Assembly (NCBI RefSeq): GCF_000019525.1
Contig: NC_010506.1
Span: 4,774,001-4,838,000, forward strand
Length of the DNA stretch: 64,000 nt
Source: Shewanella woodyi ATCC 51908
GTDB taxonomy: Bacteria; Pseudomonadota; Gammaproteobacteria; Enterobacterales; Shewanellaceae
Direction of reading: 5' to 3'
In this document: piece by piece, positions 1,864 through 20,137 of the stretch
Layout of the letters: each line of letters opens with the position of its first letter
How positions within the stretch are numbered: position 1 is the first letter of the stretch
Made by a program: the position numbers and the translations under genes
The notes under the pieces: generated by a model
Seen by the model: the letters and a program-made list of their open reading frames with translations, nothing else
Database searches by the model: none
What the model was told of the DNA's origin: nothing

Positions 1864-2112
1864 TTAGTGCTTAGGCCTTACACCGTCACGCACCATCTCT
1901 TTACCATTTTCATACACTTCATCGGTCACCCAACGCGCATGTAAAAGCTTATGGTTAGCATCAAACACTGCAACAAAGTGACGGCCATCGGCATTATTTG
2001 TTGCCATACCCACGCCTTCAACACCTTGAAGACCTAAACCACCGGTTTCAACTGATACCAAAAAGCGTCTTAAATCATCTAGGTTGTCGATAATATTCTG
2101 TTCATCATTCAT
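1864..2112 (-). CDS. Small conserved-looking protein of unknown function
   Basis: Encodes 82 residues, acidic at the N-terminus, with no signal peptide or membrane segment. It holds a Gly-rich stretch (GGLGLQGVEGVGMA, about residues 24-37) followed by a beta-rich segment (HFVAVFDANHKLLHARWV). AAGAG lies about 10 bases before the ATG. It precedes the cupin gene on the same strand. I do not recognise a family. Codon use looks ordinary for the region, so I take it as a real gene with a housekeeping or stress role unknown. Confidence 0.55.
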   Translation of the reverse strand: MNDEQNIIDNLDDLRRFLVSVETGGLGLQGVEGVGMATNNADGRHFVAVFDANHKLLHARWVTDEVYENGKEMVRDGVRPKH

Positions 2113-6812: not shown

Positions 6813-7352
6813 ATGCATGTAACAGACTACAAGCATTGGCTAGCACACCTTATCTTAACTGGCTTTATGCTGTTAGTAAGTGGCTGCTCCTTCAATAATT
6901 TTGGCATAGCTAGTGAGTCTCACATAGCACTTTATCAGCATGCTAAAATTGTCACCAATCAAGCCTCTGGATTACATATCTATACAGAGCCGATGTTAGG
7001 TATTCAGCTTGGACATATAGAGCAGCGACTCGTCTACCCTTTGCTCAGCACAGAGCACTCTGTATGCATCGACCAAATCCTCGATAACACCTCAAAGATT
7101 GATGAGCCAGAGAAAGTACAGAAGTATGCTAATACACCAGTGATTGTCAGTAGCCAAAAGGCAGGACTAGGTTTTTCAGCCTCTCCTTACCATATTCGTG
7201 TAGACCTAGGATCCTCCTCGCGCAAAACACTCAGGGTTGACCAAAAAGACTCAATATCTATTTACTACTTAAATGCAGCACAGAAACGAGATGAAGATAT
7301 CTGCGCTGTGCTCAAAATAAAACCAACTGATAGGGATATTAATGATGAATAA
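6813..7352 (+). CDS. Lipoprotein of unknown function, first gene of a four-gene operon
   Basis: Encodes 179 residues with a hydrophobic signal segment ending in a lipobox (LLVSGC, Cys near residue 25), so the product is expected to be lipid-anchored. After the Cys comes ESHIALYQHAKIV, then LGIQLGHIEQRLVYP. This pattern recurs in the next two proteins. Two further cysteines (SVCIDQI, DICAVLK) could form a disulfide. GGGAACACG lies upstream of the ATG as a weak ribosome site. The end overlaps the next gene by 11 bases. I recognise no family. Confidence 0.65.
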   Translation: MHVTDYKHWLAHLILTGFMLLVSGCSFNNFGIASESHIALYQHAKIVTNQASGLHIYTEPMLGIQLGHIEQRLVYPLLSTEHSVCIDQILDNTSKIDEPEKVQKYANTPVIVSSQKAGLGFSASPYHIRVDLGSSSRKTLRVDQKDSISIYYLNAAQKRDEDICAVLKIKPTDRDINDE

Positions 7353-7695
7353 ACAGATGTTATGCCCACTACTCGTTATGTTTTTAGGTGGTTGCCAAGC
7401 CAACCACCTAGTCTATGTGCAGGAAACCTCCTTTGGGTTAACCATAGCTGCCAGCACTGAAGGAAGTAACAAGATGTCATTGGGTTACGATAGGGATATC
7501 TACGCCATCGTACCTAAGAAAACAGATGAAACAGATGCCATGTCACTATTTTCAGTGAACAAGGTAAAAGTAAAAGGACTGGATGATATGGAAGTTTCAG
7601 AGTTTGTTGCAAGTGGAGATGCCGCAGAGGAATTAGCTAAAAGTGCAAACTCTATCGATAAACTACGCGAAAAAGTATATGGAGATGTAAAATAA
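7342..7695 (+). CDS. Small lipoprotein of unknown function, second gene of the operon
   Basis: Encodes 117 residues with a short signal peptide and lipobox (FLGGC, Cys near 18). It has the shared module: ETSFGLTIAAS followed by MSLGYDRDIYAIVPKK. The C-terminal half is charged and probably helical (DAAEELAKSANSIDKLREKVYGD). The ATG lies inside the end of the preceding gene (ATGATG; either may be used), and the stop overlaps the next start by one base, so translation is coupled. No family recognised. Confidence 0.65.
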   Translation: MMNKQMLCPLLVMFLGGCQANHLVYVQETSFGLTIAASTEGSNKMSLGYDRDIYAIVPKKTDETDAMSLFSVNKVKVKGLDDMEVSEFVASGDAAEELAKSANSIDKLREKVYGDVK

Positions 7696-8519
7696 TGAGA
7701 ACTATCACCTTAGCACTCATCCCATTCTTGGCATTAACGCACTTATCAGGCTGCAGCAATGCGGTTACCTACCACCACTCAGAGCGAAACAGCATCGCCC
7801 TTGAAACTCGCGCGACAGACCCTCAACAGCCAGTTCAAGGCACCATCGGGATTAAAACCCGCACTATAGTGGTCACTCCTAAAGTTGATAAAACAAATGG
7901 TAATGCAACCAATGTAGTGAGTGACTTTGAGCTGAAACGAAAATCAAGTGGACACTGGTATGGAACCACAGAGATAAACAGTGCATTTATGACAGGCAAA
8001 GCAGCTAAAGATGCCAGCACTCGAAGTATACTTGCCGTTAAAGGAGGTTTAGGCAGTGGCCATTTAGGGCCGTTAAATACCCATAAAAAAATGATATTGC
8101 AAAATATGTACGACACCCTAGTTGATCTAACAGAAGACAAAGGTGCTGTTAAACTTCAAACACAATTAGATAACCTGCATAAATTACTCCCCGATGTAAG
8201 CAAAATGACCTTCTATCATCTCACGAATAGCAAAAAAAATTTAACAGATGTCAAAGGTAACCAAGTCAACAGTATATCGGCAGATTTCAATGGTGTGATG
8301 AACTATCTAGAATTAGTCGACACCAGCTTATTAGCCCTCAATTATATGCTGAATAACAGAGCAGTAACTTACAAAAGCAAAGATATTGATGGGACGCAAT
8401 TAAACAGCTTAAAGCAAGCCAAAGAGCTAAAAAACAAGGAGAGAGAAGCCTTCAATACAACCATAGGTAATAGCCCATCAATTGATAACACTATTACCTT
8501 TATTACAGACATTCTATAG
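7695..8519 (+). CDS. Lipoprotein of unknown function, third gene of the operon
   Basis: Encodes 274 residues with a signal peptide and lipobox (LTHLSGC, Cys near 20). The shared module appears as ERNSIALETRA, then GTIGIKTRTIVVTPKV. A Gly/Ser-rich central part (LAVKGGLGSGHLGPLNTHK) is followed by a long, probably helical C-terminal region with Leu heptads (VKLQTQLDNLHKLLPDV) and a Lys/Glu-rich stretch. It starts with a one-base TAATG overlap. No family recognised. The three lipoproteins could assemble together at the outer membrane. Confidence 0.65.
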   Translation: MRTITLALIPFLALTHLSGCSNAVTYHHSERNSIALETRATDPQQPVQGTIGIKTRTIVVTPKVDKTNGNATNVVSDFELKRKSSGHWYGTTEINSAFMTGKAAKDASTRSILAVKGGLGSGHLGPLNTHKKMILQNMYDTLVDLTEDKGAVKLQTQLDNLHKLLPDVSKMTFYHLTNSKKNLTDVKGNQVNSISADFNGVMNYLELVDTSLLALNYMLNNRAVTYKSKDIDGTQLNSLKQAKELKNKEREAFNTTIGNSPSIDNTITFITDIL

Positions 8520-8529
8520 GGGTTAAGCA

Positions 8530-8784
8530 ATGAATGTTAATGAGATAACCCGCCAAGAGTGGGAAGAGAGTTCAACGCTCTCCCCCACACAGGAAAATAT
8601 AAAGTTCTTTCGATTAGAAGATTGGGAAACCCTTGAAATAGAGACAGAAATAGAAAACATTAAAGACTATGCAAAAGCCTTGCAGCGCGTTGCACAAAAA
8701 ATAAAAAGCCATGGCTACGGTATTATTGAAGCTAAACGAAATGATAAAGATGATGCTTGGCTATGTAAATGCATAACGCCATAG
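8530..8784 (+). CDS. Small acidic cytoplasmic protein, fourth gene of the operon
   Basis: Encodes 84 residues with no signal peptide. It begins 10 bases after the third lipoprotein stop, with AGGGGT upstream. Acidic first half (EEWEESS, LEIETEIENIKDYAKALQRVAQKIKSHGYG), a single CKC near the C-terminus. Unlike its three exported neighbours it should stay in the cytoplasm, so it may be a chaperone or regulator for them; this is a guess from position only. No family recognised. Confidence 0.55.
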   Translation: MNVNEITRQEWEESSTLSPTQENIKFFRLEDWETLEIETEIENIKDYAKALQRVAQKIKSHGYGIIEAKRNDKDDAWLCKCITP

Positions 8785-8848: not shown

Positions 8849-8874
8849 GATAAGCCCAAGATCTTGGGCTTATC
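8849..8874 (+). terminator. 26-bp perfect palindrome after the lipoprotein operon
   Basis: Two 13-base arms (8849-8861 and 8862-8874) are exactly complementary and meet without spacer, with core AAGCCCAAG/CTTGGGCTT. No T-run follows, so it may be a factor-dependent terminator, an RNA end stabiliser or a protein site. It lies 65 bases past the last gene of the operon. Confidence 0.5.
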
Positions 8875-13839: not shown

Positions 13840-16026
13840 TTATTCTGCGGCGCTCTTTGCTCGTGCGCTATGCAGTTTCTTGTAGCTTTCAATCAGTCTC
13901 AGATGTGGCTCAATTCCCTCTAAGGCCATACTGGTCTTGGTCAAGCCATAAAAACGAACATCACCATTAACCGAGCCAACCACATTTTGCATCACATCGA
14001 TACCAAACATACGGTTAAAGTTATTGATGAAGTGCTCAAGCTCAAGAGTTTCATCTAAGGTCACTTCCAATACAGCATTCACCGCTTGATAGAACAGACC
14101 ACGCTCAACCGTATTATCGTTAAACTGCAGGAAGTCACCAACTAACTCTATCGCTTCCTCGTGAGCACCAAGTGCTAGATAGATAAGAATTTTAAGCTCG
14201 ATAATGGTGAGCTGCCCCCAAACGGTATTCTCATCGAACACGATACCTATCATGGTACGAATATCGGTGTAGTTATCCTGCTGACTCTCCTCTAAACGAT
14301 TGACCAGATCCACCAGCTCATCATCAGACAGGGAATGTAGATTTAAGATATCTTCACGGTATTCAAGCGACTTATTGGTGTTATCCCAAATCAGATCATC
14401 GACTGGGTAGACCTCTGAAAAATCAGGCACTAGCATACGGCACGCCGACGCACCTAAGTCGTTAAACTCAGCGGTGTATACCTCTTTACCTAAGTCAGCA
14501 AGAATACCAAACAGGCTATCAGCTTCCTCTTGGTTAGTGCCTGAGAAATCCCACTCGCAGAACTCAAACTCAGCATTACTGCTAAAGAAGCGCCATGAGA
14601 TCACGCCGGTTGAATCGATAAAGTGCTCAACAAAGTTTTCAGGCTCAGTCACGGCCATGCTGTTAAAAGTAGGCTTAGGTACATCATTTAGCCCTTCGAA
14701 GCTTCGGCCTTGCAGCAACTCAGTTAAGCTGCGCTCTAGTGCGACCTCAAGACTTGGATGAGCACCAAATGAGGCAAATACACCGCCAGTCTTTGGATTC
14801 ATTAAGGTCACACACATCACAGGAAACTGACCACCTAGTGAGGCATCTTTAACGACAATAGGGAAGCCTTGCTCCTCTAGTCCCTTAATTCCAGCCAAGA
14901 TACTTGGGTACTTCTCTAACACTGTTTGTGGCACGTCCGGCAAGACTATCTCTTGCTCGATGATCTGGCGCTTAACGGCGCGCTCAAAGATCTCAGACAG
15001 ACACTGAACTTGTGCTTCCTGCAGGTTATTACCCGCGCTCATGCCATTACTTAAAAACAGGTTCTCTATTAGGTTTGATGGGAAGTACACTGTCTCACCA
15101 TCTGAGTGACGCGTATAGGGAATGGTACAGATCCCACGGTCGATATTGCCCGAGTTGGTATCAATCAGGTTAGAGCCTGCAAGCTCGCCATCTGGGTTAT
15201 AAATCTCTAAACAATATTCATCTAACATACCCGCAGGAAGTGAATCATCGTCAGTTAACTCAAACCACTTCTCATTTGGGTAATGAACAAATTCGCTATT
15301 GGCAATCTCTTCACCAAAGAACTGATCATTATAGAAAAAGTTGCAGTTAAGACGCTCGATAAACTCACCTAACGCAGAGCAAAGTGCGCTCTCTTTGGTC
15401 GCCCCTTTACCATTGGTAAAACACATAGGCGATGCAGCATCACGAATATGCAGTGACCATACGTTGGGTACGATATTACGCCATGAGGAGATCTCTATCT
15501 TCATTCCAAGATCCGCCAAGATGCCGGTCATATTGGAGATGGTCTGCTCAAGTGGCAAATCTTTACCTAAGATATAGGTGTTCGCGTCGCTATCACCTTG
15601 TCCCATGAGCATCGCATTGGCATCGGCATCTAAATTTTCAACAGTCTCAATCTTAAATTCAGGGCCTGTTTGCACCACTTTCTTAACGGTACAACGCTCA
15701 ATGGAACGCAAAATCCCCTGGCGATCTTTCTCTGAGATATCCTCAGGTAACTCAACCTGAATTTGGAAAATCTGGTTATAGCGATCTTCAGGATCGACAA
15801 TATTATTCTGTGACAATCTAATGTTTTCAGTCGGAATATCACGCGCCTTGCAGTACACCTTTATAAAATAGGCGGCACACAAGGCAGACGATGCTAAGAA
15901 ATAATCGAAAGGACTCGGCGCCGAGCCGTCACCCTTGTAGCGAATAGGCTGATCTGCTGTGACAGTAAAGTCATCGAACTTAGCTTCCAATCTCAGATTG
16001 TCGAGAAAATTAACTTTGATTTCCAT
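13840..16026 (-). CDS. ycaO: OsmC-YcaO fusion protein
   Basis: About 728 residues from the ATG at 16026; a longer frame would need a GTG five codons upstream. Residues about 1-140 are an OsmC-type peroxidase fold with the two expected cysteines (SSALCAAYF, SIERCTVKKV). The YcaO ATP-grasp-like cyclodehydratase domain follows, with its Glu-rich ATP/Mg motifs (SALGEFIERLNCNFF, EAQVQCLSEIFERAVKRQ). The last 130 residues are helical, TPR-like. E. coli YcaO (about 586 residues, no OsmC part) is linked to beta-methylthiolation of ribosomal protein S12 with RimO. In this lineage the OsmC fusion is the usual form (known family architecture). No peptide substrate or RiPP genes are nearby. Confidence 0.88.
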   Translation of the reverse strand: MEIKVNFLDNLRLEAKFDDFTVTADQPIRYKGDGSAPSPFDYFLASSALCAAYFIKVYCKARDIPTENIRLSQNNIVDPEDRYNQIFQIQVELPEDISEKDRQGILRSIERCTVKKVVQTGPEFKIETVENLDADANAMLMGQGDSDANTYILGKDLPLEQTISNMTGILADLGMKIEISSWRNIVPNVWSLHIRDAASPMCFTNGKGATKESALCSALGEFIERLNCNFFYNDQFFGEEIANSEFVHYPNEKWFELTDDDSLPAGMLDEYCLEIYNPDGELAGSNLIDTNSGNIDRGICTIPYTRHSDGETVYFPSNLIENLFLSNGMSAGNNLQEAQVQCLSEIFERAVKRQIIEQEIVLPDVPQTVLEKYPSILAGIKGLEEQGFPIVVKDASLGGQFPVMCVTLMNPKTGGVFASFGAHPSLEVALERSLTELLQGRSFEGLNDVPKPTFNSMAVTEPENFVEHFIDSTGVISWRFFSSNAEFEFCEWDFSGTNQEEADSLFGILADLGKEVYTAEFNDLGASACRMLVPDFSEVYPVDDLIWDNTNKSLEYREDILNLHSLSDDELVDLVNRLEESQQDNYTDIRTMIGIVFDENTVWGQLTIIELKILIYLALGAHEEAIELVGDFLQFNDNTVERGLFYQAVNAVLEVTLDETLELEHFINNFNRMFGIDVMQNVVGSVNGDVRFYGLTKTSMALEGIEPHLRLIESYKKLHSARAKSAAE

Positions 16027-16472
16027 TGAATAGATTTCCACTTATATAGCGAGTGTCACTCAGCCCTGAGTCTTACGTGACCCTAGCGCAAATGAACTTA
16101 ATTGTGGGGAATTATCGGTGTTTTTGACTCATTAGTCTTGGGTTAATTACATATGCTGACTACAAAGACCGATAAATTCAAAAAACAAGCCTGAATATCT
16201 CAGTTAAAAAGCTTACAGGCAGGTGAAAGTAGCGAATCTAGATGACCAAATTAAGTCGCCAGCAAAAAGCCATGCCGCACAAAAAAGTAAACCTTTATAT
16301 GAATTGGCACGTATAGATAATAGCGATTACTCATCTGCGGGCTCACCTTGTCATTATATCGAATCATCTCATGCCTTAATGGCTTCATTACCAATAAGGT
16401 TATATCAGAAAAGCAATACAGGATTGCTTTCTCAGCGTTAGCTGTTCGAAAGAGAATTGAAGAGGAAGGTAG
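16027..16472. other. Intergenic region between ycaO and photolyase genes
   Basis: 446 bases separating divergent genes, presumably containing both promoters. A GTG-started 72-codon frame at 16223-16441 has no convincing ribosome site and no recognisable product. The photolyase ribosome site (AGGAAGG) is just before 16473. Nothing else seen. Confidence 0.4.
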
Positions 16473-19236: not shown

Positions 19237-20137
19237 GCATATGGATAAGTATGAATCTATGCAGCTATTTATTCACACATCTCGGTCAGGAAGTTTTACG
19301 GCTGCAGCTGATGAGCTGAATCTGACACAAAGTGCTGTTAGCAAAAAAATAGCTTGGTTAGAAAAAAAATTAGGCTTTACGCTTTTTCACCGAAACAGTC
19401 GCAAAATCCAATTAACAACCCAAGGGAAAAACTACTTAAGTTATTGCAAGCAGGCACTCGATGAAATGACCTATATAGAGTCTCAGTTGAAAGGCGAGCT
19501 AAACGCAGTAATAGGTGAACTTAGGCTGTCAGTGCCAAGTGCGATGGCGACTCAAATTCTAGCGAAACCAATCAGTGACTTCATGGCTATCCACCCACAG
19601 CTAACAGTTAATATCTCTGTCAACGATCGTCAAGTTGATTTAATCGAAAGTAAGGTAGATATTGCGATCCGAGTTGCAACCCTCCCAGACTCAGGCTACA
19701 AAGCTCGGTTTCTTTTCAATAACCAAAGCATCATGTTTGCCTCTCCAAGTTACCTAAAAGATAAAGGAACCCCTAAAACTGCTGAGGAGTTAACCACACA
19801 TCAATGCCTTGTCTACTCTCTAAAGGCACCATCGAATATATGGTCACTAACCGATAGTAATAACACTACAGTCAAAGTTAAGGTAAAGGAAAGGGTTAAA
19901 AGTGATAGCGCCGAAATGCTTTTAAAGATGTCCCTTATGGGACACGGCATATCAGCCCTACCCAACTGGATGGTAAAACAACACATAGATAATGGGAGAC
20001 TCACGGCAATATTGGTTGATTACCAATCAATGAGCTTACCCATGTACGCCGTATTTAAAGCCGATGGCTACCAGCCATACAGAATTCAGGCATTTGTAAA
20101 CTTTTTGGCCGAATACTTCCAAGATAATATCGATTAA
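19235..20137 (+). CDS. LysR-family transcriptional regulator
   Basis: A 300-residue regulator. The N-terminal winged helix-turn-helix is clear (MQLFIHTSRSGSFTAAADEL, NLTQSAVSKKIAWLEKKLG, LFHRNSRKIQLT). The C-terminal periplasmic-binding-protein-like effector domain is typical of the AaeR/DmlR-like group. ATG at 19235 or 19241; no strong ribosome site for either. Divergent from doxX with a palindrome at its own start, so autoregulation and control of doxX are likely. Confidence 0.88.
   Translation: MHMDKYESMQLFIHTSRSGSFTAAADELNLTQSAVSKKIAWLEKKLGFTLFHRNSRKIQLTTQGKNYLSYCKQALDEMTYIESQLKGELNAVIGELRLSVPSAMATQILAKPISDFMAIHPQLTVNISVNDRQVDLIESKVDIAIRVATLPDSGYKARFLFNNQSIMFASPSYLKDKGTPKTAEELTTHQCLVYSLKAPSNIWSLTDSNNTTVKVKVKERVKSDSAEMLLKMSLMGHGISALPNWMVKQHIDNGRLTAILVDYQSMSLPMYAVFKADGYQPYRIQAFVNFLAEYFQDNID

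What the first reader, a model, noticed from the sequence alone, without database searches (positions are those of the whole stretch)
6813..8784. Unrecognised four-gene operon: three lipoproteins sharing an N-terminal module plus a soluble partner
Three consecutive, overlapping lipoprotein genes differ in length (179, 117 and 274 residues), yet each has, soon after the lipid-anchor Cys, a stretch like (E/S)-x-S-(hydrophobic)-x-L followed about 15-25 residues later by (L/I)G(I/Y)-x6-V/I-V-x-P. Examples are LGIQLGHIEQRLVYP, MSLGYDRDIYAIVPKK and GTIGIKTRTIVVTPKV. The shared pattern suggests descent from a common unit or one common binding partner. Coupled translation and a fourth, cytoplasmic protein suggest a multi-part surface assembly. 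I recognise no known family in any of the four.
Basis: partly seen in the sequence, partly recalled or inferred. Interest (0 to 1): 0.7.

Follow-up and report, generated by a model that had tools for sequence, protein, structure and literature searches.

The report
Unnamed three-lipoprotein operon with swappable domain
Four neighbouring bacterial genes, three of them lipid-anchored envelope proteins that share a short sequence motif, occur together in scattered proteobacteria, match no named family found here, and one of them shows an exchange of its outer half between strains.

Summary
The four genes are real: lp1 (179 aa), lp2 (117) and lp3 (274) overlap by 11 and 1 nt; g4 (84 aa) follows after 10 nt. 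lp1-lp3 carry lipoboxes without Asp at +2 (predicted outer-membrane lipoproteins). No match above a curated Pfam or NCBIfam cut-off was found. The order lp1-lp2-lp3 holds in 5 of 5 loci read, a g4 relative in 4 of 5. The set is sporadic (2 of 129 Shewanella genomes); lp3 has no match in the phage, plasmid and viral sets searched.

The shared motif is real: a conserved hydrophobic-G-x8/9-P in strongly constrained parts of each family, twice in lp1. That it marks one homologous domain is unproven: tests were weak and mixed, some plainly negative.

New here: lp3 joins a near-invariant module (residues 21-63, 98-100% identical in five S. woodyi/S. hanedai-type sequences) to a divergent helical domain (45-48% between the window and three of them), and one sequence is recombinant, with its break near residue 120, the domain border. 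Best reading: an uncharacterised outer-membrane lipoprotein complex with conserved assembly parts and an allele-diverse binding domain. Complex, location and function are inferred.

The parts
6813..7352 (+). lp1: lipoprotein, 179 aa, Cys25; two copies of the short unit (about residues 44-77 and 109-143)
   Evidence: ORF and lipobox; purifying selection; 18 proteins at E<=0.001, self included; conserved G67/P76 and G133/P143 (in the window's own lp1 the second P is D)
7342..7695 (+). lp2: lipoprotein, 117 aa, Cys18; one unit (about residues 23-59), then strands and helix
   Evidence: 130 proteins at E<=0.001; invariant C18, G32, G48, P58, M67, G92, A95 in 90 rows; AF2 model mean pLDDT 73
7695..8519 (+). 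lp3: lipoprotein, 274 aa, Cys20; N-terminal module about 21-115, divergent helical C-domain about 125-274
   Evidence: 37 proteins at E<=0.001, self included; domain-wise identity; AF2 model
7755..7883 (+). lp3 residues 21-63: most conserved stretch measured, contains the motif
   Evidence: 98-100% among window and P0002-P0005; dN 0.010 with pS 0.72 against S. hanedai; mean 77% over 136 pairs of loci
8067..8516 (+). lp3 C-terminal helical domain (residues 125-274), allele-diverse; exchanged as a block in P0002
   Evidence: Window against P0003-P0005: 45-48% where the N-module is 98-100%; P0003-P0005 among themselves 74-87%; mean 34% for residues 120-274 over 136 pairs, and break near residue 120
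8530..8784 (+). g4: small protein without signal peptide, 84 aa, fast-evolving; in the genomes searched, relatives only in those with the operon
8849..8874 (.). perfect 26-nt palindrome downstream of g4, possible terminator
   Evidence: read from the sequence; not reported by the terminator scan, which asks for a loop

Best explanation
An operon for a multi-subunit outer-membrane lipoprotein assembly of no named family. lp1, lp2 and lp3 are made together by overlapping genes, lipidated and, having no Asp at +2, sorted to the outer membrane. Their conserved parts, each holding the same short motif (twice in lp1), form the subunit interfaces. lp3's helical C-terminal domain projects from this platform and binds something variable, so it diverges and can be swapped while the platform stays fixed. 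g4 is a cytoplasmic accessory (regulator or pre-export partner). Shown: gene set, order, constraint, motif, one lp3 domain swap. Inferred: the complex, its orientation, the binding role of the C-domain, the role of g4.
For: Order lp1-lp2-lp3 in 5 of 5 loci read, a g4 relative in 4 of 5. 19 of 37 lp3 proteins have an lp2 protein of the same longest-contig length, and 6 of 18 lp1 proteins too (lengths typed; 119 of 120 listed lp2 rows have a length; one of the 19, P0033/P0111, looks doubtful). Neighbouring locus tags in Porticoccus (lp1, lp2, lp3), a Beijerinckiaceae MAG (lp1, lp2) and two other Shewanella and a Rheinheimera (lp2, lp3). One copy each in the own genome of lp2 (E<=10), lp3 and g4 (E<=0.001). 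Low dN in the motif regions, faster linkers. lp3 residues 21-63 100% but C-domain 46-48% between the window and two proteins named S. woodyi. P0002 is 93-100% to P0005 in every block up to residue 120, then 25-67%, where it is 53-100% to the window. The lp3 N-part is conserved yet modelled mostly below pLDDT 50 as a monomer, as expected of a part that folds with partners, but also of a thin alignment.
Against: No interaction, localisation or expression data. Sporadic occurrence: dispensable. G665 has no g4 relative and a 206-aa lp3 that matches only profile positions 7-159 of 281, so neither g4 nor the C-domain is essential to the set. Homology of the units is weak and fails in single-family tests.
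Confidence: 0.5

Rival explanations
1. A periplasm-facing outer-membrane complex for envelope upkeep (peptidoglycan or lipid related). The C-domain binds a periplasmic ligand and diverges only through relaxed constraint.
For: Outer-membrane lipoproteins often face the periplasm (general knowledge). In G665 a DUF2272 gene lies downstream, a family I recall as cell-wall-hydrolase-like. lp3 C-domain dN is 0.46 with dS 1.84, so purifying selection, not positive selection.
Against: The DUF2272 neighbour was seen in 1 of 5 loci. Between the window and two proteins named S. woodyi the C-domain differs by over half while residues 21-63 are identical, more than relaxed constraint easily gives.
Confidence: 0.22
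2. A horizontally spread defence or exclusion locus: the lipoproteins block a phage, plasmid or rival at the outer membrane, and the lp3 C-domain sets specificity.
For: Scattered presence; an RHS gene beside the operon in one locus and an RHS-like end by eye in another, with a transposase-like ORF by eye; exchangeable allele-diverse domain.
Against: PADLOC: only two weak local matches, 0.0024 and 0.045, to proteins of other kinds. No lp3 match in 50,697 phage or 72,556 plasmid records, no lp2 match in plasmids, none confirmed in viral contigs by a few peptide patterns of lp3 and lp2. S. woodyi-type and S. hanedai loci share a nearby 82-aa gene, so the chromosomal place is partly kept.
Confidence: 0.15
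3. Three unrelated lipoproteins kept in one operon; the shared motif is convergence on a common strand-turn-strand arrangement, not common descent.
For: Without signal peptides unit comparisons are weak: E 0.017-0.13, lp1 first unit against lp3 0.36. Combined unit profiles find lp3 (26 of 36 above the control 95th percentile) but not lp2 (9 of 90) or lp1 (1 of 20); lp2 alone finds 0 of 36 lp3 and 2 of 20 lp1; lp3 alone 0 of 90 lp2 (clean controls; the same but 28 of 36). Shuffled sequences come near the best true scores, and a control tops the lp1 profile's list.
Against: Conserved G and P at near-equal spacing in three families, twice in lp1. Longer profiles show mutual lp2/lp3 enrichment: 27% and 22% above 2 bits against 1% of 329 controls and 5-6% of 549 shuffles. 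lp1 units alone find 23 of 36 lp3. Same order of predicted strands, at low confidence.
Confidence: 0.4
4. The hairpins insert together into the outer membrane as an oligomeric beta-barrel pore.
For: Conserved strand-rich parts near the lipid anchor.
Against: Charged residues lie in the predicted strand regions (K54, R56 in lp3; D50, R51 in lp2; read); the monomer models list only a few strands.
Confidence: 0.06

Closest known systems
Multi-lipoprotein outer-membrane assemblies in general (for example the Bam lipoproteins; recalled, not tested)
   Same: Several lipoproteins of unlike length, predicted for the outer membrane and made together
   Different: No PDB sequence match of lp1, lp2 or lp3 profiles; no integral barrel protein among the four genes
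Variable surface lipoproteins that exchange their exposed domain (recalled class)
   Same: Invariant anchor part, divergent distal part, recombination at the domain border
   Different: Surface exposure not shown; one copy in the own genome; one recombinant seen
RHS/CDI-type polymorphic toxin loci (recalled class)
   Same: Variable C-terminal domain followed by a small fast-evolving gene; RHS or RHS-like genes nearby in 2 of 5 loci (one by Pfam, one by eye)
   Different: No toxin family matched; the C-domains of the 36-row alignment are relatives of one another

Membership tests
Bacterial lipoproteins (signal peptidase II substrates) | Signal peptide ending in a lipobox with invariant Cys | tested here: met
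   Cys invariant in lp2 over 90 rows, at least 90% conserved in lp1 and lp3; lipidation itself not testable here
Outer-membrane-sorted lipoproteins | No Asp at +2 (rule recalled from Enterobacteria) | tested here: met
   +2 is Ser, Gln, Ser in lp1, lp2, lp3; location not shown
Any Pfam or NCBIfam family | Match above the curated cut-off | tested here: not met
   None for the four proteins. Of all rows, only single-member weak hits: Pfam 90, 20 and 36 rows, NCBIfam 36 lp3 rows; cut-offs are not shown in those four tables
Known anti-phage defence systems (PADLOC) | Match to a system's own core proteins | tested here: not met
   two weak local hits only (0.0024, 0.045); defence function itself not testable here
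One homologous module shared by lp1, lp2 and lp3 | Significant profile similarity outside the signal peptide | tested here: inconclusive
One homologous module shared by lp1, lp2 and lp3 | Same fold of the aligned segments | tested here: inconclusive
   Same strand order listed for lp2 and lp3, but lp3 N-part mostly below pLDDT 50, lp1 not modelled, models not superposed
Polymorphic toxin with immunity gene | C-terminal toxin domains unrelated between alleles | tested here: not met
   C-domains align throughout the 36-row A1 and match no toxin family; the shorter G665 lp3 was not in A1
Known solved fold | Clear structural match | tested here: inconclusive

The most novel reading that the evidence does not exclude
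An undescribed surface-polymorphism system: a three-lipoprotein platform with an almost frozen assembly module displays an lp3 helical domain that strains exchange as a cassette at the module border, under pressure from phages, rivals or partners, with g4 matched to the cassette.
Probability: 0.18. Interest if true: 0.65.

Novelty: new variant of a known kind. Interest (0 to 1): 0.4.

Why it matters
It defines a small, widely scattered set of proteobacterial envelope proteins that the family libraries searched do not name, gives exact motifs and residues to test, and shows one component with a frozen anchor module and a variable outer domain. If the complex and its exposure are confirmed, it would be a new surface structure whose variable part points to an unknown selective agent. 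Until then it is a well-described family of unknown function.

Tried and rejected
Family and PDB sequence searches gave nothing usable. Spanin idea: the only hit (E 0.14) covers lp3 residues 5-46, the signal peptide and the first part after it. Prophage, plasmid or virus cargo: no lp3 match in phages or plasmids, no lp2 match in plasmids, none confirmed in viral contigs; lp2 was not searched in phages, lp1 and g4 in none of these. Paralogues in the own genome: none of lp2 at E<=10, none of lp3 or g4 at E<=0.001; lp1 not searched. Empty-site test: the flanking formate-dehydrogenase-like gene (name by eye) in another Shewanella (L013) has other genes upstream, so no clean empty site. Widening by taxon drew few hits. 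Structure libraries named no fold. Shared promoter: S. hanedai upstream DNA aligns patchily except at the lp1 start; Rfam none. Repeats round the operon: only chance-like pairs. Papers: two searches, listings with abstract starts seen, none read; no title listed concerns this operon.

Control faults found on checking: the background count included operon genes among its 81 ORFs, and one search's controls held one lp3 relative; one search repeats both with clean controls. The 11.8-bit and 14.5-bit control maxima vanish there (3.5 and 4.2). Negative control for hhalign, lp2 against lp3 C-domain: 37 of 80 shuffles as good.

Full report
What is there. The window lies in a 5,935,403-base single-contig genome of the genus of S. 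hanedai (G014's contig has the length of the S. hanedai contig; I recognise the size as S. woodyi ATCC 51908 from memory, which no call states). The four ORFs are as described: lp1 6813-7352, lp2 7342-7695, lp3 7695-8519, g4 8530-8784, all +. lp1/lp2 overlap by 11 nt, lp2/lp3 by 1 nt; g4 starts after a 10-nt gap. The first three have a signal peptide with a lipobox and no Asp at +2 (read). A perfect 26-nt palindrome at 8849-8874 may end the transcript (read).

They are genes. Against S. hanedai (L003), pS is 0.66-0.74, while dN is 0.27 (lp1), 0.11 (lp2), 0.31 (lp3) and 0.47 (g4). The DNA at the lp1 start is conserved where the rest of the upstream region is patchy.

No known family. Nothing above a curated cut-off in Pfam or NCBIfam for the four proteins; weak PHROG hits only, best 0.011 for g4 and 0.021 for lp3; two weak PADLOC matches; no PDB sequence match by profile for lp2, lp3 or lp1, E 0.7 for g4. 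Scanning the rows of the lp2, lp1 and lp3 alignments against Pfam (90, 20, 36) gave single-member hits or none.

Distribution. At E<=0.001 lp3 has 37 proteins, lp2 130 (120 listed), lp1 18, self included where listed, among 5.8 billion. Named sources include Shewanella, Rheinheimera, Thalassotalea, Porticoccus, Nitrosomonas, a Beijerinckiaceae MAG and a 'Deltaproteobacteria' MAG. In genomes, own included: lp3 in 2 of 129 of the genus, 1 of 394 of the order sample, 3 of 369 of the class sample; lp2 in 1 of 398 of the phylum sample. Around other centres: lp2 in 1 of 53 of G611's family, 1 of 2 of G665's family and order. g4 in 2 of 126 of the genus and 2 of 369 of the class, only in genomes with the operon.

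Gene order. I read five loci: window, S. hanedai (L002/L003), Porticoccus sp. W117 (L004), unnamed G611 (L005) and G665 (L006). All five have lp1-lp2-lp3 in order. A g4 relative follows in the first four; in G665 a different 99-aa ORF starts after a 9-nt gap, and lp3 is 206 aa, matching profile positions 7-159 of 281. In G611 lp1 has no ATG, GTG or TTG before its lipobox. One metagenome protein, P0123, runs lp1 into lp2, an in-frame deletion or an assembly error.

The shared motif. The strict common pattern is hydrophobic-G-x8/9-P, preceded 14-19 residues earlier by G/S-h-x-h, mostly with a basic residue 3-5 after the G (in the second lp1 unit only 40%). It is at lp1 G67-P76 and G133-P143, lp2 G48-P58, lp3 G52-P62, ends at least 85% conserved. 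Chance figures are in the observation check; the pattern was defined after looking. These regions are constrained: dN 0.15 and 0.17 in the lp1 parts 25-80 and 111-160 against 0.55 in 81-110, 0.056 in lp2 18-60, 0.010 in lp3 21-63 (the lp1 tail 161-179 is as low, 0.16, and lp2 61-95 is 0.071, so the motif is not the only constrained part).

Is it one domain? For: hhalign lp3 against lp2 E 1.9e-5, collinear over 101 columns, signal peptide included; the lp2 profile scores 27% of 37 lp3 N-parts above 2 bits and the lp3N profile 22% of 90 lp2, against 1% of 329 controls and 5-6% of 549 shuffles (family members are not independent). Against: lp1 against the others gave no convincing alignment; without signal peptides lp2/lp3N is E 0.071 with 4 of 80 shuffles as good, other tested unit pairs 1, 2, 4 and 26 of 80; best shuffles approach the best real scores, and a control tops the lp1 profile's list; with clean controls combined unit profiles find 26 of 36 lp3 but 9 of 90 lp2 and 1 of 20 lp1, and single-family ones 0 of 36 lp3 (from lp2), 0 of 90 lp2 (from lp3), 2 of 20 lp1 (from lp2), 10 of 90 lp2 and 23 of 36 lp3 (from lp1). 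Models: lp2 (mean pLDDT 73) has strands 22-29, 33-35, 43-45, 51-58, 69-79, 82-91 then helices; lp3 (N-part mostly below 50) has strands 56-64, 71-83, 91-99 then short helices. I put common descent at about 0.5.

lp3 is two-part. Residues 129-273 are mostly helical and mostly above pLDDT 80. Between the window and two proteins named S. woodyi (P0003, P0004), residues 21-63 are 100% identical and 125-274 48% and 46%; P0003, P0004 and P0005 share 74-87% of the C-domain. P0002 (no organism given) is 93-100% to P0005 in every block up to residue 120; beyond it 25-67%, and there 53-100% to the window. S. hanedai's own lp3 (L003) has P0005's sequence over that first part by eye. The lp1 with P0002's contig length (P0160) is S. 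hanedai-like. So the C-domain moved as a block with the break at the domain border. Over 136 pairs of 17 loci (16 of the 19 matched pairs plus the window; dropped: one doubtful, two not in A5) mean identities are lp3 21-63 77%, lp2 19-60 69%, lp3 70-118 56%, lp2 61-117 55%, lp3 120-274 34%. The C-domain is under purifying selection between window and S. hanedai, so positive selection is not claimed.

Mechanism. The most economical reading is an outer-membrane lipoprotein complex: overlapping genes for matched synthesis, conserved parts as interfaces, a variable projecting helical domain on lp3 as the binding part. g4 has no signal peptide and evolves fast; its role is open. Alternatives are given with their tests.

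Alignments used: A1 35 of 37 lp3 hits plus window (self and a truncated one dropped); A5 89 of 120 listed lp2 hits plus window (rows chosen by hand, mostly leaving out proteins from short contigs); A7 15 of 18 lp1 hits plus window and four loci (self, the Porticoccus duplicate and P0172 dropped).

Noticed in passing
L004:4509-5723 and L010:16679-17938, 19287-19871: RHS/YD-repeat-like pieces near the operon in two of five loci; by Pfam only L010:16679-17938 is a clear RHS match, the others by eye.
   Followed up: partly
L010:10895-14171: Downstream of the operon in G611: a membrane protein with a sub-threshold 8xMP match, a PAP2-superfamily protein and a retroviral-type aspartyl protease.
   Followed up: partly
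window 1864-2112 and L003:6531-6779: The same 82-aa gene lies near the operon in both Shewanella; in the window a TonB-receptor-like gene and a two-component pair (names by eye) lie between.
   Followed up: partly
L005:2746-3270: lp1 of G611 has no usual start codon between the upstream stop and its lipobox; a rare start or a sequence error.
   Followed up: no
P0123: Single metagenome protein in which lp1's second unit runs in frame into lp2.
   Followed up: no
window 13840-16041: 733-aa - strand ORF that looks by eye like an OsmC-YcaO fusion.
   Followed up: no
L006:2113-2412: In G665 a 99-aa ORF unlike g4 by eye sits in the fourth position, after a 9-nt gap from lp3.
   Followed up: no
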